Assembly (NCBI GenBank): GCA_021324255.1
Contig: JAJPJL010000007.1
Location: 1-32,734, forward strand
Direction of reading: 5' to 3'
Source of the DNA: Bacillota bacterium
GTDB taxonomy: Bacteria > Sysuimicrobiota > Sysuimicrobiia > Sysuimicrobiales > Segetimicrobiaceae
DNA length: 32,734 nt
Of this stretch, positions 1 through 31,399 are shown piece by piece. Within the stretch, counting starts at the first letter, position 1, and each line of letters begins with the position of its first letter. The notes under the pieces were generated by a model that worked only from the letters and a program-made list of their open reading frames with translations, was not told where the DNA came from and did not search any database. Position numbers and translations under genes: made by a program.

Positions 1-5
1 CCATT

Positions 6-106
6 CGGGGCTGGTTCCGGCTCTTCGGCGGCCCGGCCGACTTCGGTGGAAGTCCCGCGGCTTTGCGTCCCCGCCTCACGGCGGGTTTGCCCGTTCGGAA
101 GCCCCG
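6..106 (-). promoter_or_regulatory. c-di-GMP-I (GEMM) riboswitch aptamer
   Basis: Read on the minus strand, the two hallmark GEMM blocks are present in the right order: GGGCAAACC (plus coordinates 84-92) and GGGACGCAAAGC (60-71). Between them is a 6-bp stem closed by a GTGA (GNRA) tetraloop (70-85, loop 76-79). A second hairpin follows, GACTTC/GAAGTC with a CACC loop. The closing P1 helix is also there: CGGGGC and TTCCG at 96-106 pair with GCCCCG and CGGAA at 6-19. The G that matches Vc2 G20 is kept, which favours c-di-GMP over cGAMP. The expression platform and the controlled gene lie to the left of position 1, outside the window. The aptamer starts about 50 nt past the stop of the minus-strand ATP-grasp gene, so it may respond within a readthrough transcript or have its own promoter. 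The motif match is seen directly; ligand and control direction are inferred. Confidence 0.8.
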
Positions 107-158: not shown

Positions 159-1112
159 CTACTTCCCTGCCGGCGCCGCGGTCGATATCCGCCACAAACC
201 ACCCAGGTACCGATCGAACTCGTACGAGTCGAAGTAGAAGCGGCCCGCACCGGGCGTCACGGCGGTTTCTCCGAAGTACACTTGGGTCCCGCTGTCGTAC
301 ATGTCGACCCGGAGAAAGTCGAGCGGCCGGGCCAGGGTCTCGGCGCAGGCGATCAGCTCGTCGAGATGTGCGGGAGGCGGCGCGTCGCGCTCCAGGGGCT
401 GGTATCGTGCCGAGGCCACCGGAAGCTTGTGCCAGGACGGATCGTAGAAGCTCATCCGCGCGCCGGTCAAATATCCCTGCACGACCTGGATCATGCGAAC
501 GGTCCCGTCGAATACAAAGCATTTGTAATCGGTCGGCGTCGGTCCGGTGCCGTCGCTGATGAGCTCCTCGATGAGCACGCGCGGCTCGATCGGCCGGTAC
601 ATGGGCTCCCGAAAATGGAAATAGTAATTTTCCCCGAGCCACGAGCGGCACGTGCCGATCAACTCGTCCCGGTCCACCTCGGCTTTGTCGAGCACGACCC
701 GCACCCAGTGGGAGCCGTGTGACGCCTTCACCACGAAGGTATCCGGCAGCGCATCGAAGGGGATGTCTTCCGGCGCCGTCGTGGTCCAGTAGAGTCGAGG
801 CAGCACAGCCCCACCGACCGCATCGCGCACATACTCGCGGACGGCGTACTTGTCGGACAGCATGGTGAGAATCGGCCGCCGGTCGAATATCATCCGGTAC
901 AGGACCTTCTCCGTAAAGGTCCTCGGCTGAAACAGATTGGGGAACCTGCCGAACTGCATGCGGTAACCGCGCAGCGCCACCCACAACTCCGTCACCCTGT
1001 CCGCGAGCACCGCCGACACGGGGCCCGGGGCCGCCCGCCGCACGGCGCGCGGCGCCTCGTGTGTCGATGACGACCCCGTTACGCGCGCCGGATCCGCGCG
1101 GTCAACTGACAC
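159..1112 (-). CDS. TupA-like ATP-grasp enzyme
   Basis: This belongs to the TupA-like ATP-grasp family, named for a teichuronopeptide synthesis protein. ATP-grasp enzymes join a carboxylate to an amine or thiol through an acyl-phosphate, so a cell-wall or polysaccharide peptide ligase role is plausible; the substrate is unknown. Visible signatures are an FTEKVLYRM segment near the N-terminus, the nucleotide-binding stretch VVKASHGSHWVRVV, VLIEELI, PTDYKCFVFDG, and the C-terminal metal site RVDMYDSG...YFGE...PGAGRFYF. I chose the GTG at 1112 (317 aa) because GGAGG lies 8 nt upstream; an in-frame TTG at 1151 would add 13 residues with no comparable ribosome site. It is the last gene of the minus-strand group and follows an aminotransferase that could supply or process an amino acid. 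The family call is secure; the reaction is inferred. Confidence 0.85.
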   Translation of the reverse strand: MSVDRADPARVTGSSSTHEAPRAVRRAAPGPVSAVLADRVTELWVALRGYRMQFGRFPNLFQPRTFTEKVLYRMIFDRRPILTMLSDKYAVREYVRDAVGGAVLPRLYWTTTAPEDIPFDALPDTFVVKASHGSHWVRVVLDKAEVDRDELIGTCRSWLGENYYFHFREPMYRPIEPRVLIEELISDGTGPTPTDYKCFVFDGTVRMIQVVQGYLTGARMSFYDPSWHKLPVASARYQPLERDAPPPAHLDELIACAETLARPLDFLRVDMYDSGTQVYFGETAVTPGAGRFYFDSYEFDRYLGGLWRISTAAPAGK

Positions 1113-1214
1113 ACCGAGCACCTCCGTGTCGTGCAGCGTGACGCTGCCCAATGACCCGCCGCCGCGGGCCCCGAACGCGCCGCCCCCGAGGCACGGACGG
1201 CCGCGGTCCTCGTG

Positions 1215-2179: not shown

Positions 2180-2968
2180 CTAATCCGTGGGGGAAGACGC
2201 GCGACCGGGCTTGGCGCCCGGGCCGGTGCCGGTGGCGTTGCCCCTCGACGGGGCCTCCTTTGGCGCAGCAAGCGGATCGGGGCTGTCCGCGGCGTCCGGC
2301 CGCGGCCACGTGGTCTGAGGCTGGAGGAGGTTCTTTTCGATCGCCCATGCCGCCGCATGGGCGCGGTTTCGCAGGCCCAGCCGGCGGTAGATGGACCGAA
2401 GGTGGCTCTTCACCGTCGACTCCGACAGGAAGAGCTTGGCGGCAATCTCCTTGTCCGCGAGGCCGCGGGCGACCTCGACCAGGACTTCGAGGTCGCGGTC
2501 GGTCAGGCCGTGGAGCCCCCTCCTGACCGGTTCGGTGCCGAAGCCGTTGCTCGCGAGGTCCTCGAGCAGCTGCCGGGCGATATTGGTGTTGATCATCGTG
2601 CGTCCCTGATGCACCGCCCGAATCGCACGGATCATGTTCTCCGGCGAGATGTCCTTCAGCACGTAGCCGACCGCGCCCGCGGCGATCGCCTTGCGGAACA
2701 ATCCCGGCTCGCTGTAGACGGTCAGGATCAGGACCTGCGTCGCCGGGCACTCCTGTTTGATCGCGCGCGTCGCCTCGATGCCGTCGCCGCCCGGCATCTT
2801 GAGATCCATGAGCACCACGTTCGGCTTGAGTTGCGCCGTCAGCCGGACGGCTTCCGGGCCGCTCTCCGCTTCGCCGACCACCTCGATGTCCGCGGCGTCC
2901 TGGAGTACGACCCGCAGGCCGACGCGGGTCAAGCTCTGATCGTCCACGATCAAGAGACGAATCGTCAT
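2180..2968 (-). CDS. NarL/FixJ-family response regulator
   Basis: This is a DNA-binding response regulator, 262 aa. The receiver domain (about 1-118) has the acidic pair D9/D10, phospho-acceptor D55 in VVLMDLKMP, switch T83 and conserved K105. The LuxR-type helix-turn-helix is at about 155-212 (LTDRDLEVL...STVKSHLRSIYRRLG). A tail of about 45 residues rich in Pro, Ala and Gly follows and is longer than usual for the family. The gene begins 28 nt after the histidine kinase stop, and GGGGG 7 nt before the ATG can serve as ribosome site, so the kinase is its likely partner. All phosphorylation residues are present, unlike in the second regulator at 4295. Targets are unknown; the divergent intergenic region and the polysaccharide operon are reasonable candidates. 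Confidence 0.93.
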   Translation of the reverse strand: MTIRLLIVDDQSLTRVGLRVVLQDAADIEVVGEAESGPEAVRLTAQLKPNVVLMDLKMPGGDGIEATRAIKQECPATQVLILTVYSEPGLFRKAIAAGAVGYVLKDISPENMIRAIRAVHQGRTMINTNIARQLLEDLASNGFGTEPVRRGLHGLTDRDLEVLVEVARGLADKEIAAKLFLSESTVKSHLRSIYRRLGLRNRAHAAAWAIEKNLLQPQTTWPRPDAADSPDPLAAPKEAPSRGNATGTGPGAKPGRASSPTD

Positions 2969-5037: not shown

Positions 5038-5247
5038 ATGGCGGAGCGACACGTCAAGCTGAACGAGAAGCACGGCGGATCTCAGCATCCGCAATGGCCG
5101 ATCGGTTCGGCATTCGCGTATCAATCGTCGATCTGGCGGGTGCAGGGTCTGTATCTCGCGCCCACGTCCTCGGGCAGCCGCGAGCTGTGGTGGATCTTGG
5201 ACGAGCAGAAACCCGAGGCTTCGGATCTCGACAGCGGAGGCGAGTGA
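5038..5247 (+). CDS. small protein of unknown function, 69 aa
   Basis: A convincing short gene: GGAGGGG lies 4 nt before the ATG, and its stop is 2 nt before the start of the exporter gene, whose ribosome site (GGAGG) is inside this ORF. The product is soluble, has no signal peptide or membrane segment, and is rich in aromatic residues (W20, W33, W51, W52, several Tyr). Its core, WPIGSAFAYQSSIWRVQGLYL, looks like a beta-rich fold, followed by WWILDEQKPE and an acidic tail. I do not recognise a family. Position between a regulator and the export protein suggests an accessory or regulatory role in polysaccharide export. Confidence 0.7.
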   Translation: MAERHVKLNEKHGGSQHPQWPIGSAFAYQSSIWRVQGLYLAPTSSGSRELWWILDEQKPEASDLDSGGE

Positions 5248-5249
5248 TC

Positions 5250-6362
5250 ATGAGGCACGTGCTGCAACGACTGCGGAGGTACGCCGCGCCGGGACTGGCG
5301 CTTGCGGTGATGCTTGCGGCCGCGGGCCCCGCGGCAACGGCGCCGGTCTACATGGGACCGCCGCCGCAGGTCGGCGCGTCCCCATCCGGACAGCAGCCGG
5401 GGACGCCTCCGGCCGGACAGCAGCCGGGCGCGCCTCCGCCCGCCGATCAGGCCGTGCCGCCGTCGGCCCCTGGGTCGTCGACGCAGGCGCCCGTCGGCCC
5501 GGGCGCGCAGGCCGGCCAGAGCGACCAGCCGTACACGGTGCAGCCCGGCGACGTCCTCCAAATCTCGGTCGTGGGGGAGCCGGAGGTCACGGGCGCCGTC
5601 ACCGTGAGCCCGGACGGCGCGATCCAAATGCCGCTCGTCGGCCGGATCCCCGCGGCCGGCGCGACCCTGCCGCAACTCACGGACCGCGTGACCCAGGCGC
5701 TCAAGACGTACATCCGTGAGCCGCAGGTCGCGATCACGATTTCCCAGACCGCAACGCGCCAGCAGTTCGTGTACGTGCTGGGCCAGGTGGGGCGGCCCGG
5801 CGCCTACCAGATGCAGGAAGGCCTCACGATTGCCGGCGCGATCGCCGCGGCCGGCGGTCCGACCCCGAGCGCGGAGTTGACGCACGCCTTCATCATGCGC
5901 AAGTCCCAGACGATTCCCATCGACCTCCAGAGCCTGCTCGTCGACGGGAATACCCAGGCGAACGCGCAGGTGCAGCCGGGCGACGTCATCATGGTGCCCC
6001 AGGGCCGCGATCGCGTGCTCCTCATGGGGGCGGTAGCGCGGCCGGGCGCGTACGTGATCAACCCCGGTGACCGTCTGGTCGACCTGCTCTCCGCGGCCGG
6101 CGGCTCGGCGCAGGGCGCACAGCTCAAGAACGTCGGCATCATCCGGCACACCGTCCAGGCGAACACCGCGGCGGCGCCCAACAAGCCGACGGTGACCCAG
6201 GTCGACCTGACCAAGTTCTACACGAAGGGCGACATGACGCAGAACGTCGAGCTGCAGGCGGGGGACATCGTCTACGTGCCGGAGCGGGGACAGCATCCGA
6301 TCTGGGACTCGTTCCTCAACACGCTGGGAGGCCTGGGCTGGCTCGTGTGGTTCATGCACTGA
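5250..6362 (+). CDS. polysaccharide export protein (OPX/Wza-type)
   Basis: This 370-residue secreted protein belongs to the polysaccharide biosynthesis/export (OPX) family. An N-terminal signal peptide (about 1-31, hydrophobic core APGLALAVMLAAAG) is followed by a Pro/Gly/Gln-rich linker (about 36-90). The Poly_export domain begins at YTVQPGDVLQISVVGEPEV (about 95-165), and two SLBB-type domains follow (from about 172, VYVLGQVGRPGAY, and about 256, VLLMGAVARPGAY). No lipobox cysteine is present, so it is not a lipoprotein like E. coli Wza. The C-terminus ends in a short hydrophobic stretch (GLGWLVWFMH) rather than the long amphipathic helix that forms the Wza outer-membrane pore. The start at 5250 is set by GGAGG 9 nt upstream and the signal peptide; the frame is open further upstream. 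It probably works with the co-polymerase encoded next. Confidence 0.92.
   Translation: MRHVLQRLRRYAAPGLALAVMLAAAGPAATAPVYMGPPPQVGASPSGQQPGTPPAGQQPGAPPPADQAVPPSAPGSSTQAPVGPGAQAGQSDQPYTVQPGDVLQISVVGEPEVTGAVTVSPDGAIQMPLVGRIPAAGATLPQLTDRVTQALKTYIREPQVAITISQTATRQQFVYVLGQVGRPGAYQMQEGLTIAGAIAAAGGPTPSAELTHAFIMRKSQTIPIDLQSLLVDGNTQANAQVQPGDVIMVPQGRDRVLLMGAVARPGAYVINPGDRLVDLLSAAGGSAQGAQLKNVGIIRHTVQANTAAAPNKPTVTQVDLTKFYTKGDMTQNVELQAGDIVYVPERGQHPIWDSFLNTLGGLGWLVWFMH
5386..5439 (+). repeat. 27-bp tandem repeat, two copies
   Basis: Two adjacent near-identical 27-bp units encode the nonapeptides SGQQPGTPP and AGQQPGAPP in the Pro-rich linker of the export protein. The unit length is a multiple of three, so copy number could change without a frameshift and would alter the spacer between signal peptide and export domain. 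Confidence 0.75.
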
Positions 6363-6373
6363 GACGAGCCCGA

Positions 6374-6395
6374 GCGCCGCGAGGACCCGCGGCGC
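6374..6395 (+). other. strong intergenic hairpin
   Basis: A perfect 8-bp GC stem, GCGCCGCG/CGCGGCGC with a 6-nt AGGACC loop, sits between the export gene and the co-polymerase gene. No U-tract follows. It may stabilise or process the transcript, or reduce readthrough; it ends about 40 nt before the co-polymerase start, which has its own GGAGGG site. Confidence 0.4.
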
Positions 6396-6437
6396 GGTCG
6401 GTGGGCCGTGGCGAAATGATCGAGGAGGGTTAGACAC

Positions 6438-8600
6438 ATGGAATTCTGGCGATATTATCGGGTGCTCCGGCAGCGCTGGGTGGTCATCGTGGTGGCCATG
6501 GCCGCGGCGATCGGCGTCGGACTCGTCGGCGCGCGCCCCGGCGGCGATGATTACGCGGCCGTCGCGACGATGTCGGTGCCCGCCACGTCCCAGTTCCTCT
6601 TCATCGCGAACGTGGGCTCCGGTCCCATGCCCACGTCCGACCAGCTCATGCAGCTCGCGATCAATCTCGTGCGCAGCCGGGACGTGGCGACGCGGGCCAT
6701 CCAGCAGCTCCAGCTCGCCCTCACCCCCGAGGACCTCGCCACCCGCATCGCCGTGCAGCAGGACCCGAGCGGTGATATGCTTCGCGTCACCGCCAAGGGA
6801 CCGACGCCGGCCGCGGCCGTGATGCTCGCAAACGCCATCGTCGACAACGCCGCGGCGTTCAGCCGGGATGTCCAGCGCCGCGAATCCACGCTCGGCCGCG
6901 AGTTCATCGAGAAGCAGCTCGCGGACGCGCAGACCAACCTCCGCGCGGCGGAGGACGCCCTGCTCGCCTACCAGCAGAAGAACGGGGTGGCGCTCGCGTC
7001 CGGCCAGAGCGCCGAGATCGGCGCGCTCCAGGCCGAGGCCCAGCAAAACGACTTCGCGCTCCAGGAAGCCAACGCGAAGATCGCGTCGTACACCTCGCAG
7101 ATGCAGGCGGCCGGGGCCGCCCCCGCGCAGCTCCAGGACAACGCGGTCACCCAGCAGCTCCGCGCCGAGCTCGTGCAGCTCGAGGTCCAGCTCGCCGCCC
7201 AGCTGGCGGTACACACGGACGCCTACCCCGCGGTCGTCGCCCTCAAGGCGCAAATCGACGCGGTCAAAGGGCGCCTCAACACGGAGCTGCAGAAGATCGC
7301 GGCCACGAGCCAGGGGCAGCATACCCCGATGTACGAGGCGCTCGCCATGAACCGGATCGCCGCGCAGACCGACCAGATCGCGCTCGAGGCGCGCAGGCAG
7401 GCGATCCAGCAGGCGATCACCGCGGCGACGCAGCATCTGCCGACGGTCGCGCAGACCCAACTCGACGCGGCGCGGCTGAACCGCACGGCGGAGATCCTCA
7501 CGACCCAGGTCGCCAACCTGGAAGGCCAGCTCGCCCAAGCCCGCGTCCGCGAGCAGGAGATGCAGAGTCTCGGGGCCCTGACGGTCCTGGATCACGCCAG
7601 CAGCGCATTCGCCTCGCCGTTCTCCGGCAAGCCGTTCAAGCTCACGCTCGCGGGCGTGCTCGGGCTGCTCGGCGGGATCGGGCTCGCGTTCTTCCTGGAA
7701 TATGTGGATACGAGCATCAAGACGCCGGAGATGGCGGAGCGTCTGCTCGGGGTGCCGGCGCTCGTCGCCATCCCCCGGCACAACCCGCCGTTCGACGAGG
7801 CGTACCGCCTGCTGACCGTCAACCTCCTGGCGCGCGAGCCGGGCGACGGCGGCGGCGTCGTGATCGCCGTGACGAGCCCGCAGCCGCGCTCGGGAACGTC
7901 GACGGTCGTCTCCAACCTCGCGCAGGCGTTCGCCGCGGCGGGCCAGCGCACGGTGGTCGTCGACGCCGCCCTCCGGGAGCCGGTGCAGCACGCCCTGTTC
8001 AACGTCGCCAACGAGAAAGGCGTCGCCGAGGTCCTGGCCGGGACCGCCACGCTCCCGGAGATCCTCATGCCGGTGAAGCCGAACCTGTGGCTGGTCACGA
8101 GCGGCGCGGAGCGCACGCCGGACATGGGCATGCAGCTCGGGTCCGCGGCCATGGCATCGGTGCTGGCGGACCTGCGCCAGCGCGCCGACGTGATCCTCGT
8201 CGACACGTCGTCCGCCGGCGCGTTCGCGGACGTGTACGCGCTGGCCCCGCTGGCGTCCGGCGCGCTGATCGTCCTGGACGGCAGCCGCGCCCCGCGGGGC
8301 ATCGAGGAGCAGGTCAAGCTGCAGTTCGACCGGCTCGGCACGCCGGTCATCGGTTCGGTCCTGAGCAAGGTGCGGCCGGACCTGGTCGACAGCTATTACT
8401 ACCAGGAGTACTTCTACCGCAACCGTGCCGTGGCCAGGATCGCGCCGGCGGCCGCCACCACGAGCCTCGCGCTGCTCGTCGTCGCGGGCGGGCTCACGGT
8501 CGGGTTGTGGCTGTGGTTCCACTCGGGCGGCATCGCGGACCGGGCGCTGGCGCAGCCGGCCCCCAATGCACCGTCGCTGGTGAATCTCACGCGGAGGTAA
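6438..8600 (+). CDS. Wzc-like chain-length protein with degenerate BY-kinase domain
   Basis: This 720-residue membrane protein joins a Wzz-type co-polymerase to a bacterial tyrosine kinase-like domain. Its order is TM1 (about 14-33), a long extracytoplasmic Ala/Gln-rich coiled-coil region, TM2 (about 402-420), then a P-loop domain (about 470-645). The nucleotide-binding motifs have decayed. Walker A reads SPQPRSGTST, with T487 where the essential Lys belongs. Walker A' reads VVVDAALREP, with A511 replacing the second Asp. Walker B is VILVDTSS (D589). A tyrosine cluster, DSYYYQEYFY (651-660), is nevertheless kept, and a third hydrophobic segment (about 674-695) follows, which standard Wzc/CapB tails lack. 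It probably controls chain length or links polymerase to exporter, and is predicted not to be an active kinase. GGAGGG 8 nt upstream supports the start. Confidence 0.9.
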   Translation: MEFWRYYRVLRQRWVVIVVAMAAAIGVGLVGARPGGDDYAAVATMSVPATSQFLFIANVGSGPMPTSDQLMQLAINLVRSRDVATRAIQQLQLALTPEDLATRIAVQQDPSGDMLRVTAKGPTPAAAVMLANAIVDNAAAFSRDVQRRESTLGREFIEKQLADAQTNLRAAEDALLAYQQKNGVALASGQSAEIGALQAEAQQNDFALQEANAKIASYTSQMQAAGAAPAQLQDNAVTQQLRAELVQLEVQLAAQLAVHTDAYPAVVALKAQIDAVKGRLNTELQKIAATSQGQHTPMYEALAMNRIAAQTDQIALEARRQAIQQAITAATQHLPTVAQTQLDAARLNRTAEILTTQVANLEGQLAQARVREQEMQSLGALTVLDHASSAFASPFSGKPFKLTLAGVLGLLGGIGLAFFLEYVDTSIKTPEMAERLLGVPALVAIPRHNPPFDEAYRLLTVNLLAREPGDGGGVVIAVTSPQPRSGTSTVVSNLAQAFAAAGQRTVVVDAALREPVQHALFNVANEKGVAEVLAGTATLPEILMPVKPNLWLVTSGAERTPDMGMQLGSAAMASVLADLRQRADVILVDTSSAGAFADVYALAPLASGALIVLDGSRAPRGIEEQVKLQFDRLGTPVIGSVLSKVRPDLVDSYYYQEYFYRNRAVARIAPAAATTSLALLVVAGGLTVGLWLWFHSGGIADRALAQPAPNAPSLVNLTRR

Positions 8601-8608
8601 CACGTTTC

Positions 8609-9937
8609 GTGGATGCGGTAACAACGCAGGAGCCCGCAACGGGGCTGGAATCGAAGATTCGCACGCGCGCCGCGCGCGTCGGGGTGATCGGCCTGGGGTA
8701 CGTCGGCCTCGCCCTCGCGGTCGAGACCGCCGAGATCGGGTTCCCCGTCGTGGGCATCGAGATCGACGAGGACAAAGCCGCGATGGTCAACGGCTGCCGG
8801 TCCTATATCGGCGACGTCACCGACGACGCGCTGGATCGCGTCGTCGCCGCCGGACGGTTCCGCGCGACGACGGACTACGGCGCGCTCCGGGACGCGGACG
8901 TCATCATCATCTGCGTGCCGACGCCGCTCACCAAGAGCAAGGAGCCGGACCTCTCCCACGTGATCGCGGCCGCCCAGGCATGCGTGCCGGCGATCCGGCG
9001 CGACACGCTCGTCGTCCTGGAGAGCACCACGTATCCGGGCACGACCGTCGAGGTCGTGAAGCCGATCCTGGAGACGAGCGGCCTCCAGGCCGGAGCGGAC
9101 TTCGCGCTGGCGTTTTCGCCCGAGCGGATCGATCCCGGCAACCGGCGGTACAGCCTGCGCTCGATTCCCAAAGTGGTGGGCGGCATGACGCCGGCGTCGA
9201 CGCAGGTCGCGCGGACCTTTTACGAGCAGATCGCGAACACGGTCGTGCCCGTGTCCTCCCCCACGGTCGCCGAGATGGTCAAGGTCTACGAGAACGTGTT
9301 CCGCAACGTCAACATCGCGCTCGTGAACGAACTGACCCTGCTCTGCGATCGCATGTCGCTCGACGTGTGGGAGATCATCGAAACCGCGGCGACGAAGCCG
9401 TACGGCTTCATGCCGTTCTATCCCGGGCCCGGCGTGGGCGGACACTGCATTCCCGTCGATCCGTACTACCTGTCGGCGAAGGCCCGCGAGTACGACTTCC
9501 ACGCCCGGTTCATCGAGCTCGCCGCCACGGTCAACGACAGCATGCCGTACTACGTCGTCTCGCGGACGACGGGGGCGCTGGAGGCACGGGGCAAGACGTT
9601 GTGGGGGTCCAGGGTGCTGCTGCTCGGCGTGGCCTACAAGCGCGACATTCCGGATGTTCGGATGTCGCCCGCGCTCAAGGTCTTGGGGCTGCTCCACAAG
9701 CGCGGCGCGTCGGTGTCATATCACGATCCGCACGTGCCCGAGATCGCGCTGGCCAACCCGGGGACGATCCGGTCGCAGCCGCTCACCGACCAGGTCCTCG
9801 CGGATGTCGACTGCGTCATCCTCACGACGGATCACACCGCGATCGACTACGATCGCATCGTCGCGCGCGCTCCGCTGATCATCGACACGCGCAACCGGCT
9901 GCACGACTACCGGGCGTCGCACGTGGTCCGGCTCTGA
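8609..9937 (+). CDS. nucleotide-sugar 6-dehydrogenase (WbpA/WecC type)
   Basis: This UDP-sugar dehydrogenase (442 aa) oxidises C6 of a UDP-sugar to the uronic acid using two NAD+. The N-terminal Rossmann motif is GLGYVG (28-33). The catalytic cysteine is C280 in GPGVGGHCIPVDPYYL. That sequence, with the following KAREYDFHARFIELA, resembles UDP-GlcNAc 6-dehydrogenase (WbpA) and UDP-ManNAc dehydrogenase more than UDP-glucose dehydrogenase. The C-terminal UDP-binding domain includes GVAYKRDIPDVRMSPALKVL. The start is GTG at 8609, with GGAGG 11 nt upstream inside the end of the co-polymerase gene; the frame is open further upstream but overlaps that gene. Its product would give the polymer negatively charged residues and a carboxyl group for later amidation. 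Confidence 0.93.
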   Translation: MDAVTTQEPATGLESKIRTRAARVGVIGLGYVGLALAVETAEIGFPVVGIEIDEDKAAMVNGCRSYIGDVTDDALDRVVAAGRFRATTDYGALRDADVIIICVPTPLTKSKEPDLSHVIAAAQACVPAIRRDTLVVLESTTYPGTTVEVVKPILETSGLQAGADFALAFSPERIDPGNRRYSLRSIPKVVGGMTPASTQVARTFYEQIANTVVPVSSPTVAEMVKVYENVFRNVNIALVNELTLLCDRMSLDVWEIIETAATKPYGFMPFYPGPGVGGHCIPVDPYYLSAKAREYDFHARFIELAATVNDSMPYYVVSRTTGALEARGKTLWGSRVLLLGVAYKRDIPDVRMSPALKVLGLLHKRGASVSYHDPHVPEIALANPGTIRSQPLTDQVLADVDCVILTTDHTAIDYDRIVARAPLIIDTRNRLHDYRASHVVRL

Positions 9938-9998
9938 TGACGGGCCGGCCGGACGTCGGGGGATCACCGGGCCGCGCGGAGCCTGCTCAGAGACTGCG

Positions 9999-11561
9999 AT
10001 GAAGGGACACGCTTCGGCCGCGCGGGCGACGCTGCTGCTCGCCCTGGGGCTCGGTGCCGCCGTGGCCTTCGGCAGCATCGTCCTCCCGGGGTCGCGCGCG
10101 CTGCTCGGACTCGTGGCGGCGGGCGTGGCGGTCGTGACGCTCTTCAACCCGAAGATCGCGCTGTACCTCATCGTCCCGGCCATGACGTTGTCGCCGGAAC
10201 TCCCGCTCCACGGCGTCGCGGTGCGCATCGAGGACCTGATGATGGTGCCGCTGACCGTCGGATGGCTGGCGCACCTGTGCGTCGCCAAGACCCGCCGCAA
10301 GACGCCGTTCGACCGCATCCTCCTGGCCTACGTCCTCGTCAGCATCGCGGCCACGATCTGGGGCGCCGCGCTCGGGACCGTGCACCTCGCGGCCGTGAGC
10401 AAGTACGACAGCTCGCCGCTCCACGTCCTCAAGCGGATCGAGTTCGTCGTGCTCTTCTTCATCGTCGCGGATACCGTGGAGTCCCTGGCCGACGCCAGCC
10501 GGATCACGTACGTCCTCCTCGGCTCCATGATCGCGCTCAGCCTCTATTCGGCCTGGCAGTTTCACACCAACCAGGCGATCGCGCTGGGCCCCGAGGGCGC
10601 GCCCGTCCACGAGCCCGGCATGGCGTCGATGGTGACCGTCGGGCTCGCGCTCGGGCTGATGCGGAGCGCCGCCACCCCGCGCGCGCGTTTCGCCCTCACG
10701 CTGATCGTGCTGTTCGGCGTGGCCACGTTGCCGCTCGCGCTCGGCCGCAACTACATCGCCGCGACGTTGATCATCCTGCTGTACGTCGGCTTCCGGGAAC
10801 AGCGGTGGATCCTCTTCGCCGTGCCGGCGCTCGGCGCGCTGGCGTTCCTCGTGTACCCCGAAGGGGTGGCCCACCGGATCCTCACCCTCGGCAACGTGTT
10901 CTCGCCCGACCTGAGCACGCTCAACCAGACGTCGACCGCGCCGACATCGATCTTCTACCGAGCCCAGGCACCGCTCTACTACACGATGTGGGCGCTCGGC
11001 GCGTCGCCGTTGCTGGGGCTTGGGATGGGCAGCGTCCCGCTGGGCTTCATCGACAGCGAGTACGTCATCCAGCTGTTCTATACGGGGCTCGTCGGGCTGG
11101 CGATCTTTCTCCTCTTCGGCGCCAGGTTGTTCCGGGTGATGCGGACCATGGCGCGAGCGACCACGGACGCCCAGGCCGCCGGCCTCGTCCAGGGAGGCAT
11201 GCTCGTGATCCTGGGATACGCCGTCTACAGCCTCTTCGCGGCGTCGGTCTCGGCCACGCACACGGGAGGGCCGTTCTTCGTTCTGGCGGCCGTCATCGGC
11301 TCGCTGTCGCGCATCCTCCTTCCGCAACCGGCGGCGCAGGCGGCACGGGGCCGCATCGGGAGCCGGGCGCTCGTCCCGGTTCGGGCGACGGCGCTGCTCG
11401 GGGGCCGGACCGCCGACAACCCGTGGAAGCGCCTCGTCGTGAGGCGGCAGGTCTCCGCCCCGCCGCGCCCGGCCGCCCGCTCCCGGCGTGAGTTGTGGGC
11501 GCCGTCCGGCGACCGCCGGCTGTCGGCCTTGCCGCGGGCCGCGTCCGATCCGCGTTCCTGA
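9999..11561 (+). CDS. Wzy/WaaL-type O-antigen polymerase or ligase
   Basis: This 520-residue integral membrane protein has around ten or more hydrophobic segments and the organisation of the O-antigen ligase/polymerase superfamily. The most diagnostic part is the late segment ASPLLGLGMGSVPLGF...SEYVIQLFYTGLVGLAIFLLFG, matching the family pattern of a glycine-rich loop followed by an amphipathic stretch and GLVG. A basic, Pro/Arg-rich cytoplasmic tail of about 75 residues (from about 445) is unusual. The family covers both Wzy polymerases and ligases, and sequence alone does not separate them; next to Wzc- and Wza-like genes a polymerase is favoured. The ATG overlaps the stop of a 21-codon mini-ORF (ATGA) and has only a weak ribosome site, suggesting coupling. 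Confidence 0.85.
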   Translation: MKGHASAARATLLLALGLGAAVAFGSIVLPGSRALLGLVAAGVAVVTLFNPKIALYLIVPAMTLSPELPLHGVAVRIEDLMMVPLTVGWLAHLCVAKTRRKTPFDRILLAYVLVSIAATIWGAALGTVHLAAVSKYDSSPLHVLKRIEFVVLFFIVADTVESLADASRITYVLLGSMIALSLYSAWQFHTNQAIALGPEGAPVHEPGMASMVTVGLALGLMRSAATPRARFALTLIVLFGVATLPLALGRNYIAATLIILLYVGFREQRWILFAVPALGALAFLVYPEGVAHRILTLGNVFSPDLSTLNQTSTAPTSIFYRAQAPLYYTMWALGASPLLGLGMGSVPLGFIDSEYVIQLFYTGLVGLAIFLLFGARLFRVMRTMARATTDAQAAGLVQGGMLVILGYAVYSLFAASVSATHTGGPFFVLAAVIGSLSRILLPQPAAQAARGRIGSRALVPVRATALLGGRTADNPWKRLVVRRQVSAPPRPAARSRRELWAPSGDRRLSALPRAASDPRS

Positions 11562-11576
11562 TCCCGCCGGGCGGGA
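11562..11576 (+). terminator. hairpin directly after the polymerase stop
   Basis: TCCCGCC-G-GGCGGGA is a near-perfect inverted repeat starting on the base after the polymerase stop codon. No T-run follows. With the 126 nt of non-coding sequence before the ABC-transporter genes, it may be a partial terminator or a processing site. The rest of that gap holds an AGGAGG ribosome site at about 11682-11687 and no clear promoter. Confidence 0.3.
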
Positions 11577-11702
11577 CCGCGGAGCGTGATGGTGGCGCGC
11601 ATATCGAACGGACAAACCGCAAGTGGTCCAACGATCCGGGACGGCGCGCCTCTGACCGCGCAGCGCACGATATGATGGCACAGGAGGAGTGATCCCACAC
11701 GC

Positions 11703-12539
11703 ATGACCGCCACCGCAATCGAGCTCGTCATCGAGTCGACCAACTACACGCGTCCCCGTGACCGCGCGCGCGAGCTGTGGGCGTTTCGCGAGGTCGTCCT
11801 GGCGTTCGCGGAGCGCAATATTCGCGTCAAGTACAAGCAGGCCGTCCTCGGGGTCTTGTGGGCGGTGCTTCAGCCCCTGATCTTTCTCGGCATCTTCATG
11901 GTCGTCTTCGGCCGCATGGGCAACATCTCCGGCGGAGCCACCTCGTACCCCGCGTTTGCGCTCGCCGCCCTGGTCCCCTGGTTTTTCGTGCAGACGGCCG
12001 TCACGTTCGGCGCGCAGGCGCTGCTCATGGACAGCGCGCTGCTGCGCAAGGTCTACTTCCCCCGCGAGGCCCCCGTGATCGGCGCGGTGCTGAGCGCGGG
12101 ACTCGACTTCGCCGTCGGCTTCGTCCTGCTGCTCGTCCTGGAACCGCTGCTCGGGGGCCATCTGTCGTGGAACCTGCTCATGGCGGTCCCGTTGTGGCTG
12201 GTCCTCGCGGTGCTCACGACCGGGGTCTCGTTGATCCTCGGAGCGCTGAACGTGTATTATCGAGATTTCCGGTTCGTCCTTCCCGTGGTGCTGCAGCTGT
12301 GGATGTTCGGCAGTCCCGTCGCGTACCCGCTGAGCGCCGTGCACGCGGAGTGGCGCGGCGCGTACGTCCTGCTCAACCCCGCGGCCGGGGTGCTCGACGG
12401 CTTTCGCCGCGCGCTCGCGGAGGGGCGCCTGCCGGACCTGGGTCTCCTGGGGCTCAGCACCGCCGTGTCATGCCTCGTGGCGTGGTTCGGCTACTGGTTG
12501 TTCAAACGCATGGAACCCGGATTCGCCGATGTGGTGTAA
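11703..12539 (+). CDS. wzm: polysaccharide ABC transporter permease (Wzm)
   Basis: This ABC-2-type permease (278 aa) has six hydrophobic segments and the Wzm/TagG landmarks: WAFREVVLAFAERNIRVKYKQAVLGVLWAVLQPL near the N-terminus, a central ALVPWFFVQTAV, then LNVYYRDFRFVLPVVLQLWMFGSPVAYP. It would move lipid-linked glycan across the cytoplasmic membrane together with the ATPase encoded 3 nt downstream. Length is standard. A GGAGGAG lies rather far (about 13 nt) from the ATG. Confidence 0.93.
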   Translation: MTATAIELVIESTNYTRPRDRARELWAFREVVLAFAERNIRVKYKQAVLGVLWAVLQPLIFLGIFMVVFGRMGNISGGATSYPAFALAALVPWFFVQTAVTFGAQALLMDSALLRKVYFPREAPVIGAVLSAGLDFAVGFVLLLVLEPLLGGHLSWNLLMAVPLWLVLAVLTTGVSLILGALNVYYRDFRFVLPVVLQLWMFGSPVAYPLSAVHAEWRGAYVLLNPAAGVLDGFRRALAEGRLPDLGLLGLSTAVSCLVAWFGYWLFKRMEPGFADVV

Positions 12540-12542
12540 CCG

Positions 12543-13838
12543 ATGAGCTGGGCGATTCGATTCGAGGGCGTCAGCAAGAAATACCCGGGCGCCGGGTGGG
12601 GCTATCCATCCCTGCGGGGCGACCTCAGCCGCCTCGGCCGCTCCGTCGCAGCGCGGTTCATGCGCCGGAAGGGGGATCCCGGCGGCCCGTTCGCGCTGCG
12701 CGATGTCTCCTTTGACGTGAAGGAAGGCGAGGCGTTCGCCATCGTCGGACCCAACGGCGCCGGCAAGACCACGGCCCTCAAGCTCTTGACCAGGATCTCG
12801 TTCCCGACGCGGGGGCGCATCCGCGTGCGCGGCCGCATCGGCGCGCTGATCGAGGTCGGATCGGGCATCCACCCGGAGCTGACCGGGCGCGAGAACATCT
12901 GGCTGTACGGCCGCATCATGGGCATGTCACGGCAGGAGATCAGCCGCCGGTTCGACGAGATCGTGGACTTCGCCGAGCTCGGCGACGTCCTCGACCGGAC
13001 GGTGAAGCGGTACTCCTCCGGGATGCAGCTTCGGTTGGGGTTCTCGATCGCCAGCCACCTGGACCCCGACATCTTCGTCGTGGACGAAGCCCTCGCCGTC
13101 GGCGACGCGGGCTTCCAGGCGAAGTGCGTCGAGCGGATGATGCGCCTCGTCGCCGAGGGGCGAACGCTCCTCTTCGTCTCGCACAACCTCACCGCCGTGG
13201 AGGCCATCTGCCGGCGCGGCATCTTTCTGCTCGACGGGCAGATCGAGCGGGACGGCGCGATCCGCGAGGTCCTCCAATCGTACGTCGATTGGATCGACGC
13301 GCGCCAGCAGGAGCGGTGGAGTTCCCCGGGGGCGCCGCGGGGCCGGGGGCTCGCGGTCGAGCGCGTCTCGTTTCACGACGCGTCGGGAGCGGAATGCGCG
13401 GCGTTTCGGACCGGCGATACCATCGAGATCCGCATCGCCGTGCGGCCGTCGCGGCCCATCGTGCAGCCGGCCTTCGCGTTCGGGATCACCGACGGGCGCC
13501 CCGGCAGCCTGATCATTTGCTCCATGGCGGTGGACGGCCAGGTGCCGCCCGTCATCGACCGGCCGACGGTGGTGTCGTGCCGGATCCACGACCTCCCGTT
13601 GCTGCCCCGGGTGTACCAGACGTGGTGCAGCGTGATCGGCAACCACGCGTACGGCGACCTCCTGGACTGGCAGATCGTCGGCACGTTTCGCGTCATGGAG
13701 GGGCCCCTGGGCGCGGGCGCCCCGGCGCCGCTGAGCGCGCTTCGCACGAGCGGCGTGATCCATGTCGCGCATGCCTGGGACGTTGCGACGACCGGCGACC
13801 CGGACGTCGTCGCCGCGGCCGAGGGGTACTCGCCGTGA
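12543..13838 (+). CDS. wzt: polysaccharide ABC transporter ATPase with C-terminal domain (Wzt)
   Basis: This is the ATP-binding partner of the permease, 431 aa. The nucleotide-binding domain contains Walker A GPNGAGKT (69-76), signature YSSGMQLRLGFS, Walker B IFVVDEALAVGD and the switch SHN. The last 165 residues or so (from about 265) form a separate beta-rich domain (GLAVERVSFHDASGAEC...) like the carbohydrate-binding C-terminal domain of Wzt proteins that recognise the finished O-antigen terminus before export. Such a domain implies that chains are completed in the cytoplasm and recognised by an end cap, at least in the characterised O8/O9a-type systems. Its stop overlaps the next GT2 start by 4 nt (GTGA), so synthesis of exporter and transferase is coupled. 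Confidence 0.93.
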   Translation: MSWAIRFEGVSKKYPGAGWGYPSLRGDLSRLGRSVAARFMRRKGDPGGPFALRDVSFDVKEGEAFAIVGPNGAGKTTALKLLTRISFPTRGRIRVRGRIGALIEVGSGIHPELTGRENIWLYGRIMGMSRQEISRRFDEIVDFAELGDVLDRTVKRYSSGMQLRLGFSIASHLDPDIFVVDEALAVGDAGFQAKCVERMMRLVAEGRTLLFVSHNLTAVEAICRRGIFLLDGQIERDGAIREVLQSYVDWIDARQQERWSSPGAPRGRGLAVERVSFHDASGAECAAFRTGDTIEIRIAVRPSRPIVQPAFAFGITDGRPGSLIICSMAVDGQVPPVIDRPTVVSCRIHDLPLLPRVYQTWCSVIGNHAYGDLLDWQIVGTFRVMEGPLGAGAPAPLSALRTSGVIHVAHAWDVATTGDPDVVAAAEGYSP

Positions 13839-28527: not shown

Positions 28528-29231
28528 TCGTCGCCATTCATCAGCCGCACTATCTGCCGTGGCTCCGCTACGTCCAGAAGATCGCCCTCGCCGACGTCTT
28601 CGTCCTCCTGGACGACGTGCAGTTCACGAAGAACGGCTGGCAAAACCGGACCAGGATCAAGAACGCGCAGGGTTGGATGTACCTGACGGTGCCGGTGCGC
28701 GACGCGTTCGGCAAGGCCATCAACGAGGTGCTGATCAACAATCAAGAGCGGTGGCGTCCCAAGCATTGGCAGGCGCTCCGGACGAATTATAGCCGAACGC
28801 CCTACTTCGACCGCTACGGGACGCTCCTGCGGCCGGTGTACGAGCGCCCGTGGGAGTCGGTGTGCGAGCTCAGCATCCACCTCCTCACCCTCCTGTTGCC
28901 GGCCCTGGGCGTCCGTACGCGACTGGTGCGGAGCTCCGAGCTCGGAGTCGCGGGGACCGGCACGGCCAGGGTCGTGGACATCTGCCGCCGGCTCGGCGCG
29001 ACGGCCTACCTCACGGGGGACTACGCCGCGACGAACCATCTCGACATGGCGGCATTTGCGCCGCACGGCATCGCCGTGCGGCCGCAGGGATGGCGGAGCC
29101 CCGTCTACCGGCAGCAGTTTCCCGCGGCCTCGTTCATCCCGGATCTCTCCATCGTGGACCTGCTCTTCAACGAGGGCGATCGGAGCCTGGATGTGCTGGG
29201 TGCCGGCGCGCGTGAATCCGCGCCCGCGTGA
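28524..29231 (+). CDS. WbqC-like family protein
   Basis: A 235-residue WbqC-like protein. The diagnostic N-terminus is HQPHYLPWLRYVQKIALADVFVLLDDVQFTKNGWQNR, starting at residue 6. Members are found in O-antigen and EPS clusters and often sit beside amino-sugar pathway genes; their reaction is not settled, with transfer of an acyl or aminoacyl group to a sugar the usual proposal. No signal peptide or membrane segment is present, so it is cytoplasmic. The start ATG overlaps the previous stop (ATGA). A longer frame upstream (from 28467) has no support, since conservation begins at the ATG. Confidence 0.9.
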   Translation: MIVAIHQPHYLPWLRYVQKIALADVFVLLDDVQFTKNGWQNRTRIKNAQGWMYLTVPVRDAFGKAINEVLINNQERWRPKHWQALRTNYSRTPYFDRYGTLLRPVYERPWESVCELSIHLLTLLLPALGVRTRLVRSSELGVAGTGTARVVDICRRLGATAYLTGDYAATNHLDMAAFAPHGIAVRPQGWRSPVYRQQFPAASFIPDLSIVDLLFNEGDRSLDVLGAGARESAPA

Positions 29232-31399
29232 GGCGCGCGGATCGACCTAAGACGGCCGGTGCGGACCCGATGACCGGACGATCCCGCGGCGGCAGCCCGG
29301 GCGGCCGCAGGTTGTCCCGGCGCGCCCTCATCGCAGCCGTCCAGGGGATCGCGGCGGGTACCGTGCTTCTCGGGCGGTCCGGACGGCCGCGGTCCGGCAG
29401 CGCGGCGCCGGCTCCGGCGAGCCCACCGGGCGGGGCCGCGCTCCGTCGTGTCGGGGTCCTCGACACTCCGCAGGGATTCGGCGGCCCCTGCGCGTTCGTC
29501 TCGACGGGCGGCAACAGCGTTCTCGTCATGGCGAATGGCGAGAGCGCGTACATGAACCAGATCGCGATCGACGTGACGTCCCCAGCGTCGCCGCGGATAC
29601 TCGCACAGGCCGCGGCATTCCCGTACCTCTGGGGGATGGCGGCGGCCGGCGACATGGCCGTGTTCGCATCGTCCGTCGACCCGGGCATCGGCGCGTACCG
29701 CTCCACGACGCTCGCGCGGATCTGGCAGCGGCCGCTTCCGGCGACAACCCATGCCGTGGCGACCGACGGGACCAACGTGTTCGTCCCCCAGGAGGGGACG
29801 GCGGCACTGCTGGTCCTTGACGGCAAGACCGGCGCCACCCGCGGAACCGCCCGGCTCCCCGCCGGGGCCGCGTTCGGCAAAGTGTATGGGACCGTGTACC
29901 AGAGCGGCCGGGTCTACGCGGCCGATCCGGCGCTCGGCGTGGTCGTCTTTGACGTCGCCGAGCCGGCGTCGCCATCCTACGTCACGAGATTCGGACGGGG
30001 AACGAGCAACATCGCGGTCACGGGAACGCGGGCGTGGGTCGTGCCGACGTCGTTCGGAGGAGGAGGCAATACGCTGGAGTGCTGGGACCTGAGCCGGCCA
30101 CGCGCTCCCTCCCGCGTGGGCGAGTACTCGCTGCCTGCGGCGCGCGCGAACGGCGCCGCCGTGCGTCCCACGTTGTTTGCGCCCGCGGCGACCGCCAATG
30201 GCACGCGGCTCTACGTTGTATTCAACGACTTGAACCAGGATGGCAATAGCAGCGCCGCCAACGCGTCAGGGTTCTATGCGTTCGACGTCGCCGGAGCGTC
30301 GCCGCGCCCGATCGGCCGGTTCGCCTACCCCATTCCACCCACGCGAGGGTACGCGTATCCCGTCGCGATCGCCGTCGATGCGTCCGGCAACGTCATCGCG
30401 TTGACGTCCTACTACTACGGACTTCAGATCTGGGAGCGGAGCGCCGCGGACGATTGGTCGGTCGCCAGCACCGTACCCACGGTCGGGGAATGCCGCGACG
30501 TGTACGTGGACGCGGCCGGGAATCAGACGGCGCTCGCACGATGGGTCGTCACGAGCAAGACGACCGCGGGGCGGGTGTCGAATTACAACGAGGTCGGCTT
30601 CCTGTTCGAGGGCTGGCGCGCCATCACACCGGGCACGATCCTGGTCATGGACCCGATCTCCGGAAGCGGTTTCCCGCGCGCCTACTCCGTGGCGCGCGGC
30701 CAGCTATCGCCGCTCGGCACGGTCAGGCTGAGCGGGGGGCTCGTCACGGACGCGGCGTACGACGGGTCCGGGTACCTGTATGTCTGCAGCGGAACAAGCG
30801 GGTTCACGGCGGGGCGTATCGACCCCGGCCGCGTCACCAACGTCACGCAGATCGGCACCGCGCCCGCGTACGCCGAGCGGGTCGCCCTGAACGGCAAGGC
30901 GCAGGCGTGGGTGGTCTCGCCCAAGGATGGTGTCACCTGCATCGACATACGCAACCCCTCGTCTATGTCGATCCTCGCGCGGGATCCGGCGCCCTTCGCC
31001 GAAAACGGCATGTGCGGGATCTGTGTGGCCGCCGGCCGCGTCTACGCGGCATGCGGGAGCGGCGGCATCCGGATCTACAACCCCGCGACGCTCAGGTGGA
31101 CCGGCGTTCTCGCGGACGACCCGCGGTCCGGCAAGATCTTCCCGACATGGGTCGAGACGTTCACGGGTCCCGCGACGGGCACGCCCTATCTCGTCGTCTG
31201 TCACTACGGCGACGGGATATCGTACCACCCGCCCGAAGGCCTGAGGATCTACAGTCTCGCCGATCCCGACGCGCCCCGGTTCGTCGCCGACTATCCGGCG
31301 CGCGGGGACGCCAACTTCCGGTGTCGCTTCGCCAACGGGTATCTGTACCGCTGCGCACTGTGGGGTGTCGAACAGCTGGCGGTGAGCAGCTCATGGTAA
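29228..31399 (+). CDS. Tat-exported beta-propeller protein with LVIVD-like repeats
   Basis: A 723-residue secreted protein with no recognised enzyme domain. The N-terminus holds a twin-arginine signal, SRRALIAAVQGIAAGTVLL (from residue 30), so it should be exported folded. The mature part consists of repeats resembling the LVIVD beta-propeller motif, each with a D-x-(S/A)-x-P-x-x-P core: IAIDVTSPASPRILAQ, VVVFDVAEPASPSYVTRF, LECWDLSRPRAPSRVGEY, VTCIDIRNPSSMSILARD and LRIYSLADPDAPRFVADY. A Cys-containing segment, NGMCGICVAAGRVYAACGSGG, occurs late. GTG 29228 overlaps the WbqC-like stop by 4 nt; ATG 29270 is a good alternative and gives a more normal Tat n-region. It may bind or process the exported polymer (inference). 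Confidence 0.82.
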   Translation: MRRADRPKTAGADPMTGRSRGGSPGGRRLSRRALIAAVQGIAAGTVLLGRSGRPRSGSAAPAPASPPGGAALRRVGVLDTPQGFGGPCAFVSTGGNSVLVMANGESAYMNQIAIDVTSPASPRILAQAAAFPYLWGMAAAGDMAVFASSVDPGIGAYRSTTLARIWQRPLPATTHAVATDGTNVFVPQEGTAALLVLDGKTGATRGTARLPAGAAFGKVYGTVYQSGRVYAADPALGVVVFDVAEPASPSYVTRFGRGTSNIAVTGTRAWVVPTSFGGGGNTLECWDLSRPRAPSRVGEYSLPAARANGAAVRPTLFAPAATANGTRLYVVFNDLNQDGNSSAANASGFYAFDVAGASPRPIGRFAYPIPPTRGYAYPVAIAVDASGNVIALTSYYYGLQIWERSAADDWSVASTVPTVGECRDVYVDAAGNQTALARWVVTSKTTAGRVSNYNEVGFLFEGWRAITPGTILVMDPISGSGFPRAYSVARGQLSPLGTVRLSGGLVTDAAYDGSGYLYVCSGTSGFTAGRIDPGRVTNVTQIGTAPAYAERVALNGKAQAWVVSPKDGVTCIDIRNPSSMSILARDPAPFAENGMCGICVAAGRVYAACGSGGIRIYNPATLRWTGVLADDPRSGKIFPTWVETFTGPATGTPYLVVCHYGDGISYHPPEGLRIYSLADPDAPRFVADYPARGDANFRCRFANGYLYRCALWGVEQLAVSSSW

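What the first reader, a model, noticed from the sequence alone, without database searches (positions are those of the whole stretch)
6..106. c-di-GMP-I riboswitch at the left edge, linking the locus to c-di-GMP
The minus strand carries both conserved GEMM blocks, a GTGA-capped P2-type stem, a second hairpin and a matching P1 helix. It follows a polysaccharide-type gene and precedes whatever lies left of the window on the same strand. c-di-GMP classically controls exopolysaccharide and motility, so the off-window gene is probably part of the same programme. The tetraloop is GTGA rather than GAAA and no 11-nt receptor is visible, so tertiary docking may use a simpler receptor.
Basis: partly seen in the sequence, partly recalled or inferred. 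Interest (0 to 1): 0.7.

Follow-up and report, generated by a model that had tools for sequence, protein, structure and literature searches.

The report
c-di-GMP riboswitch for secreted CAP protein
The left edge of this window holds a real, ordinary-class c-di-GMP riboswitch from an uncultured soil bacterium; it most likely controls a secreted CAP-domain protein encoded just outside the window, next to an exopolysaccharide gene cluster.

Summary
Window 23-101 (minus strand) matches Rfam c-di-GMP-I (61.9 bits, cut-off 35) and, almost equally, c-di-GMP-I-GGC (62.5, cut-off 59). By sequence the ligand contacts are canonical (G20, A47, C92), so c-di-GMP is the expected ligand. The window is a whole contig. 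Its left end shares an exact 103-mer with contig C49, where the same strand continues into a secreted CAP/SCP protein (PF00188). A sister species has aptamer and gene on one contig. The window's polysaccharide-export cluster is syntenic beside this unit in two congeners, so the guess of a shared programme is partly supported; the switch itself does not drive those genes. The host belongs to the family of Ca. Segetimicrobium (Sysuimicrobiota/CSP1-3). c-di-GMP-I aptamers occur in 43 of 43 genomes of its order, and 15 of 33 CAP genes there sit behind one. I infer repression by c-di-GMP: the ribosome-binding site and start lie in a strong hairpin, or in P1 at paralogous CAP genes. The RNA class is known; the phylum-wide regulon and its CAP focus look new.

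The parts
19..103 (-). c-di-GMP-I riboswitch aptamer including P1 (P1 strands 99-103 and 19-23)
   Evidence: RF03167 23-100 62.5 bits; RF01051 24-101 61.9 bits; P1 by RNAfold
70..85 (-). P2 stem with GUGA tetraloop at 76-79
   Evidence: sequence, CM alignment
30..61 (-). P3 hairpin
   Evidence: CM alignment
91..91 (-). G20, ligand-contact position (Vc2 numbering)
   Evidence: sequence; contacts G20/A47/C92 from PMC4744006 passages
64..64 (-). A47, ligand-contact position
   Evidence: sequence; numbering C46-A47-A48-A49-G50 from PMC7288161 passage
28..28 (-). C92, ligand-contact position
   Evidence: sequence and CM alignment
1..16 (-). 5' arm of the expression-platform hairpin; ribosome-binding site, start and 3' arm lie left of the window on contig C49 (L017)
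   Evidence: exact 103-nt contig overlap; hairpin z -5.0
159..1151 (-). TupA-like ATP-grasp gene upstream of the aptamer; not its target
   Evidence: PF14305 E 1.8e-34
2180..2968 (-). LuxR-type response regulator, conserved neighbour of the riboswitch unit in G001 and G002
   Evidence: PF00072 and PF00196; 92% and 89% identity in syntenic regions
5094..13838 (+). polysaccharide export genes (SLBB/Poly_export, ABC-2 permease, Wzt-like ATPase), divergent from the riboswitch

Best explanation
A c-di-GMP-I (GEMM-I) riboswitch in the 5' leader of a secreted CAP/SCP-domain protein gene lying just left of the window, in an uncultured member of Ca. Segetimicrobiaceae (Sysuimicrobiota). Shown: aptamer identity, canonical core, downstream CAP gene, and repeated pairing of aptamers with CAP genes in two families. 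Inferred: when c-di-GMP binds, P1 is held shut, the region after it is free to form the hairpin that encloses the ribosome-binding site and start, and CAP translation falls (an OFF switch). Without ligand the 5' P1 strand can pair with the hairpin's 5' arm and leave the start open. Class and target alone I hold at about 0.93; the confidence below is for the whole statement with the OFF direction.
For: CM scores. G20, A47, C92 present. The genome carries 11 GGDEF domains, and relatives' aptamers sit before GGDEF (2) and HD_5 (3) genes among 68 first genes scanned, as expected for a c-di-GMP sensor. Same-strand CAP gene past an exact 103-nt overlap; G002 has regulator, aptamer and CAP gene on one contig. 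15 of 33 CAP genes in 43 genomes have a sense aptamer just upstream; CAP is the commonest family among first genes, 12 of 68. Aptamer plus leader is 94.2% identical between G000 and G002 while the coding part is 72.1%. Hairpin around ribosome-binding site and start: z -5.0, -4.6, -6.7, -3.7, -1.4 in five relatives. In the seven family members of the second CAP type, a purine run read as the ribosome-binding site (GGAGG in 4, other G-rich runs in 3) is in the 3' strand of P1 (read by eye). Vc2 is described as a translational OFF switch governed by P1 (PMC9262584, section 21).
Against: No binding or expression data exist. The alternative pairing of the P1 5' strand with the post-aptamer region is no stronger than with shuffled sequence (z -1.6 to 0.9 in eight relatives), although RNAfold forms it at intermediate transcript lengths in four of the five Segetimicrobiaceae sequences with this hairpin. 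G005's hairpin is weak (z -1.4). No canonical start codon fits the hairpin in the own genus (an ATT is in place). The same 103-mer occurs in G001, so the junction C102-C49 rests on binning and synteny as well as overlap. 18 of 33 CAP genes have no sense aptamer found in front.
Confidence: 0.62

Rival explanations
1. Same riboswitch and target, but ON: ligand-held P1 prevents a competing structure and raises CAP expression, or the hairpin acts as a weak transcription terminator.
For: Tandem aptamers on contig C39 and its relatives (6 aptamers, 3 species) have a hairpin whose 5' arm is the P1 3' strand, followed by a T-rich stretch (poor in one of the six), the ON layout. Terminator-like hairpins follow 38 of 86 family aptamers against 38 of 1580 control places. 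Two f2 CAP leaders (L273, L268) show hairpins followed by T-rich stretches (read by eye).
Against: The T-rich stretch after the window's hairpin is not kept in G001 and G002, while the enclosed ribosome-binding site is. In the second CAP type the ribosome-binding site is part of P1.
Confidence: 0.3
2. A c-di-GMP-I-GGC variant (RF03167) with an altered ligand.
For: RF03167 scores 62.5 bits, above its cut-off of 59, slightly above RF01051.
Against: The printed RF03167 consensus has G where the window has A47; 83 of 87 distinct family aptamers were parsed as A47, and the other 4 read GCAAAG by eye. That G47 gives the class its name is recalled; the founding paper is not held.
Confidence: 0.05
3. 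A cGAMP sensor (GEMM-Ib).
For: Same aptamer scaffold; five relatives have A20.
Against: The window has G20; cGAMP binding is described for a G20A mutant and for Geobacter aptamers (PMC7288161 passage).
Confidence: 0.03

Closest known systems
Vc2 / c-di-GMP-I (GEMM-I, RF01051) riboswitches
   Same: Aptamer fold, G20/A47/C92 core, GNRA loop on P2, P1 as the switching helix; translational OFF described for Vc2 (PMC9262584 section 21).
   Different: GUGA loop, J1/2 that looks one base shorter, target is a CAP-domain protein, host phylum Sysuimicrobiota.
c-di-GMP-I-GGC (RF03167)
   Same: Overall sequence; passes its score cut-off.
   Different: Has A47 where the RF03167 consensus has G.
Cd1 of C. 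difficile (class I, OFF) and the class II pilin riboswitch (ON)
   Same: Opposite wiring of surface genes by c-di-GMP in one organism (PMC4744006 passage), as inferred here for CAP and a glycine/asparagine-rich protein.
   Different: Here both are class I, on neighbouring genes of one contig.
YkwD-like bacterial CAP/SCP proteins (PF00188)
   Same: Secreted single CAP domain; weak match to 4ifa. The name YkwD is recalled.
   Different: Expression behind a c-di-GMP riboswitch, not found described in my searches.

Membership tests
c-di-GMP-I riboswitch (RF01051) | covariance score above the curated cut-off | tested here: met
   61.9 bits, cut-off 35
c-di-GMP-I riboswitch (RF01051) | ligand-contact residues G20, A47, C92 | tested here: met
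   window 91, 64, 28 minus strand (contacts)
c-di-GMP-I riboswitch (RF01051) | GNRA loop on P2 docking a receptor in P3 | tested here: inconclusive
   GUGA loop present; 83 of 87 family aptamers parsed as GNRA; receptor not tested
c-di-GMP-I riboswitch (RF01051) | 5' leader of a same-strand gene | tested here: met
   CAP gene start about 13 nt left of position 1
c-di-GMP-I riboswitch (RF01051) | binds c-di-GMP and changes expression | not testable with these tools
   needs in-line probing and a reporter
c-di-GMP-I-GGC (RF03167) | covariance score above cut-off | tested here: met
   62.5 bits, cut-off 59
c-di-GMP-I-GGC (RF03167) | G at position 47 (naming recalled) | tested here: not met
   A at window 64, G in the consensus line
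GEMM-Ib / cGAMP riboswitch | A at position 20 | tested here: not met
   G at window 91

The most novel reading that the evidence does not exclude
Throughout Sysuimicrobiota, c-di-GMP-I riboswitches form a large lifestyle regulon whose commonest single target is secreted CAP proteins. CAP proteins are shut off and a neighbouring glycine/asparagine-rich surface protein is switched on by the same signal, and in one genus the orthologous surface-protein aptamer has drifted to A20, that is, to sensing cGAMP.
Probability: 0.2. Interest if true: 0.65.

Novelty: new member of a known kind. Interest (0 to 1): 0.4.

Why it matters
It gives an uncultured, globally common soil phylum a readable c-di-GMP regulon from sequence alone (CAP proteins, sigma factors, PilT-like ATPases, pilin-like proteins, c-di-GMP enzymes). 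It also gives bacterial CAP proteins, whose role is poorly known, a testable regulatory context beside an exopolysaccharide locus. The riboswitch itself is of a known class.

Tried and rejected
Naming the organism with the ATP-grasp protein found no relative; the sigma-factor alignment worked through two contigs of matching length. Whether the P1-alternative pairing exceeds chance: it does not. Classing the element as GGC: rejected on A47. Antisense control of CAP at G004 C27: rejected, since that aptamer leads into a glycine-rich-protein orthologue on its own strand (orthology read by eye). Reading the ATP-grasp gene as a conserved partner: rejected, as G001 and G002 lack it there. Covariation of loop and receptor was considered and not done. 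Of the 94 matches, 92 were analysed: the window's own copy (same locus as C49) and G011:C30 were left out; both contig halves of the G001 locus are among the 92. First genes were chosen by an open-frame and GC-position rule; 22 of 92 aptamers got none.

Full report
What is there. The window is a complete contig (C102) of a 3.74 Mb, 142-contig genome. Its first 103 bases hold a c-di-GMP-I aptamer on the minus strand: RF03167 at 23-100 with 62.5 bits, RF01051 at 24-101 with 61.9 bits. The three ligand-contact positions named for Vc2 in PMC4744006 (passages), G20, A47 and C92, are G, A and C here (window 91, 64, 28). RF03167 fits slightly better in score, but its printed consensus has G where the window has A47, so I file the element under c-di-GMP-I.

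Why it sits at the edge. The last 103 bases of contig C49 are the first 103 of the window. The same 103-mer ends contigs C53 and C116 of congener G001, and the two species share 111 identical bases there. The simplest reading is that an assembler could not separate two co-occurring species at this conserved leader. The contig break is therefore itself a sign of conservation. It also means that the overlap alone does not prove the join C102-C49. G002 supports the gene order: regulator, aptamer and CAP gene lie in that order on one contig, C73.

What it controls. On C49 the minus strand runs into a secreted CAP/SCP protein of about 194 aa or slightly more (PF00188, E 7.3e-13), starting about 13 nt left of window position 1 if the ATT is the start. 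Orthologues follow an aptamer in G001, G002, G005 and G006, in G011 (truncated by a contig end), and, with 53% and 50% identity, in G015 and G013 of another family. In 43 genomes of the order there are 33 CAP hits. I scanned all 33 surrounding loci for RNA families: 15 have a sense aptamer just upstream, 12 in the window's family and 3 in a second family. One further locus has an aptamer on the other strand that serves a different gene, and 17 have none. With at most 13 aptamers listed per genome and several thousand genes, chance would give well under one such case (estimate, not a call).

The wider regulon. RF01051 rings in 12 of 12 family genomes (4-13 matches each) and 43 of 43 in the order. 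Contig lengths 19273 and 8735 identify G007 and G008 with records of Terrabacteria group bacterium ANGP1, now Ca. Segetimicrobium genomatis, Ca. Sysuimicrobiota. Of 68 first downstream proteins scanned, 12 match CAP, 7 sigma-70, 4 T2SSE (PilT-like), 3 HD_5, 2 GGDEF, and others occur up to three times; 22 of 92 aptamers had no first gene by my rule. Genome G000 has 11 GGDEF domains. The phylum paper PMC11604079 (passages only) holds neither riboswitch nor c-di-GMP in its main text; searches for the phylum with riboswitch, and for CAP terms with c-di-GMP riboswitches (listings only; one search listed 8 of 257), showed no prior report.

The locus. The rest of the window is a polysaccharide-export cluster (Poly_export/SLBB, ABC-2 permease, Wzt-like ATPase, glycosyltransferases, nucleotidyl transferase, epimerase). 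Much of it is syntenic beside the riboswitch unit in G001 (75-97% protein identity for the best matches) and G002 (38-89%), within the stretches fetched; the ATP-grasp and the aminotransferase-like gene next to it had no match there. So in G000 two genes lie between the LuxR-type regulator and the aptamer.

How it most likely works. After the aptamer comes a hairpin enclosing GGAGG and the start region: z -5.0, -4.6, -6.7 (own genus), -3.7 (G011), -1.4 (G005). Its arms are kept in the genus while the loop changes. In the second CAP type the purine run taken as the ribosome-binding site is the 3' strand of P1 in all seven family leaders examined (by eye). Both layouts predict that ligand-held P1 lowers translation, as described for Vc2 (PMC9262584 section 21). 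Against this, the pairing that would open the hairpin without ligand is no better than with shuffled sequence. Elsewhere in the same genome the wiring looks opposite: tandem aptamers on C39 share their P1 3' strand with a terminator arm, the ON layout, before a glycine/asparagine-rich protein gene that follows a CAP gene. Direction for the window is therefore an inference, about two in three.

Verdict. Interest is moderate: an ordinary riboswitch with an informative regulon.

Noticed in passing
G011:C250, G011:C187, G006:C11, G003:C8, G004:C27 (L138, L143, L110, L089, L094): Five family aptamers read GAGCA, i.e. A20, the change linked to cGAMP sensing; two of them precede a glycine-rich-protein gene whose relatives in the window's genus have G20 aptamers.
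   Followed up: partly
L018 (G000:C39) 1-2000: A CAP gene behind one aptamer is followed by two tandem aptamers, each with a terminator-like hairpin overlapping P1, before a glycine/asparagine-rich protein gene; a like order of aptamers is seen in G001:C4 and G002:C57.
   Followed up: partly
L020 (G000:C103) from 7786: An aptamer precedes a sigma-70 factor, a MerR-like gene and a second sigma factor; in G008 and G010 a gene that I take for a roadblock/MglB-like protein follows (MerR and roadblock names recalled, not scanned).
   Followed up: partly
L068, L087, L090: Aptamers precede GGDEF and HD_5 genes, suggesting feedback on c-di-GMP turnover.
   Followed up: no
L017 14873-14900 minus and the G001, G002 orthologues: The CAP frame has no ATG/GTG/TTG at the right distance from GGAGG; an ATT codon is conserved there in three species.
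   Followed up: partly
L017 10184-11369 minus: A sortase gene beside a proline-rich protein with an LPFTG-like tail on contig C49 (tail read by eye).
   Followed up: no
window 5094-32734: A long polysaccharide export and synthesis cluster on the plus strand, with some frames without Pfam match at E 1e-5 (e.g. 6438-8600, 29228-31399).
   Followed up: partly
window 8872-8965 minus: tRNA-Pro (tgg) predicted between polysaccharide genes; Rfam's tRNA model did not list it at its cut-off.
   Followed up: no
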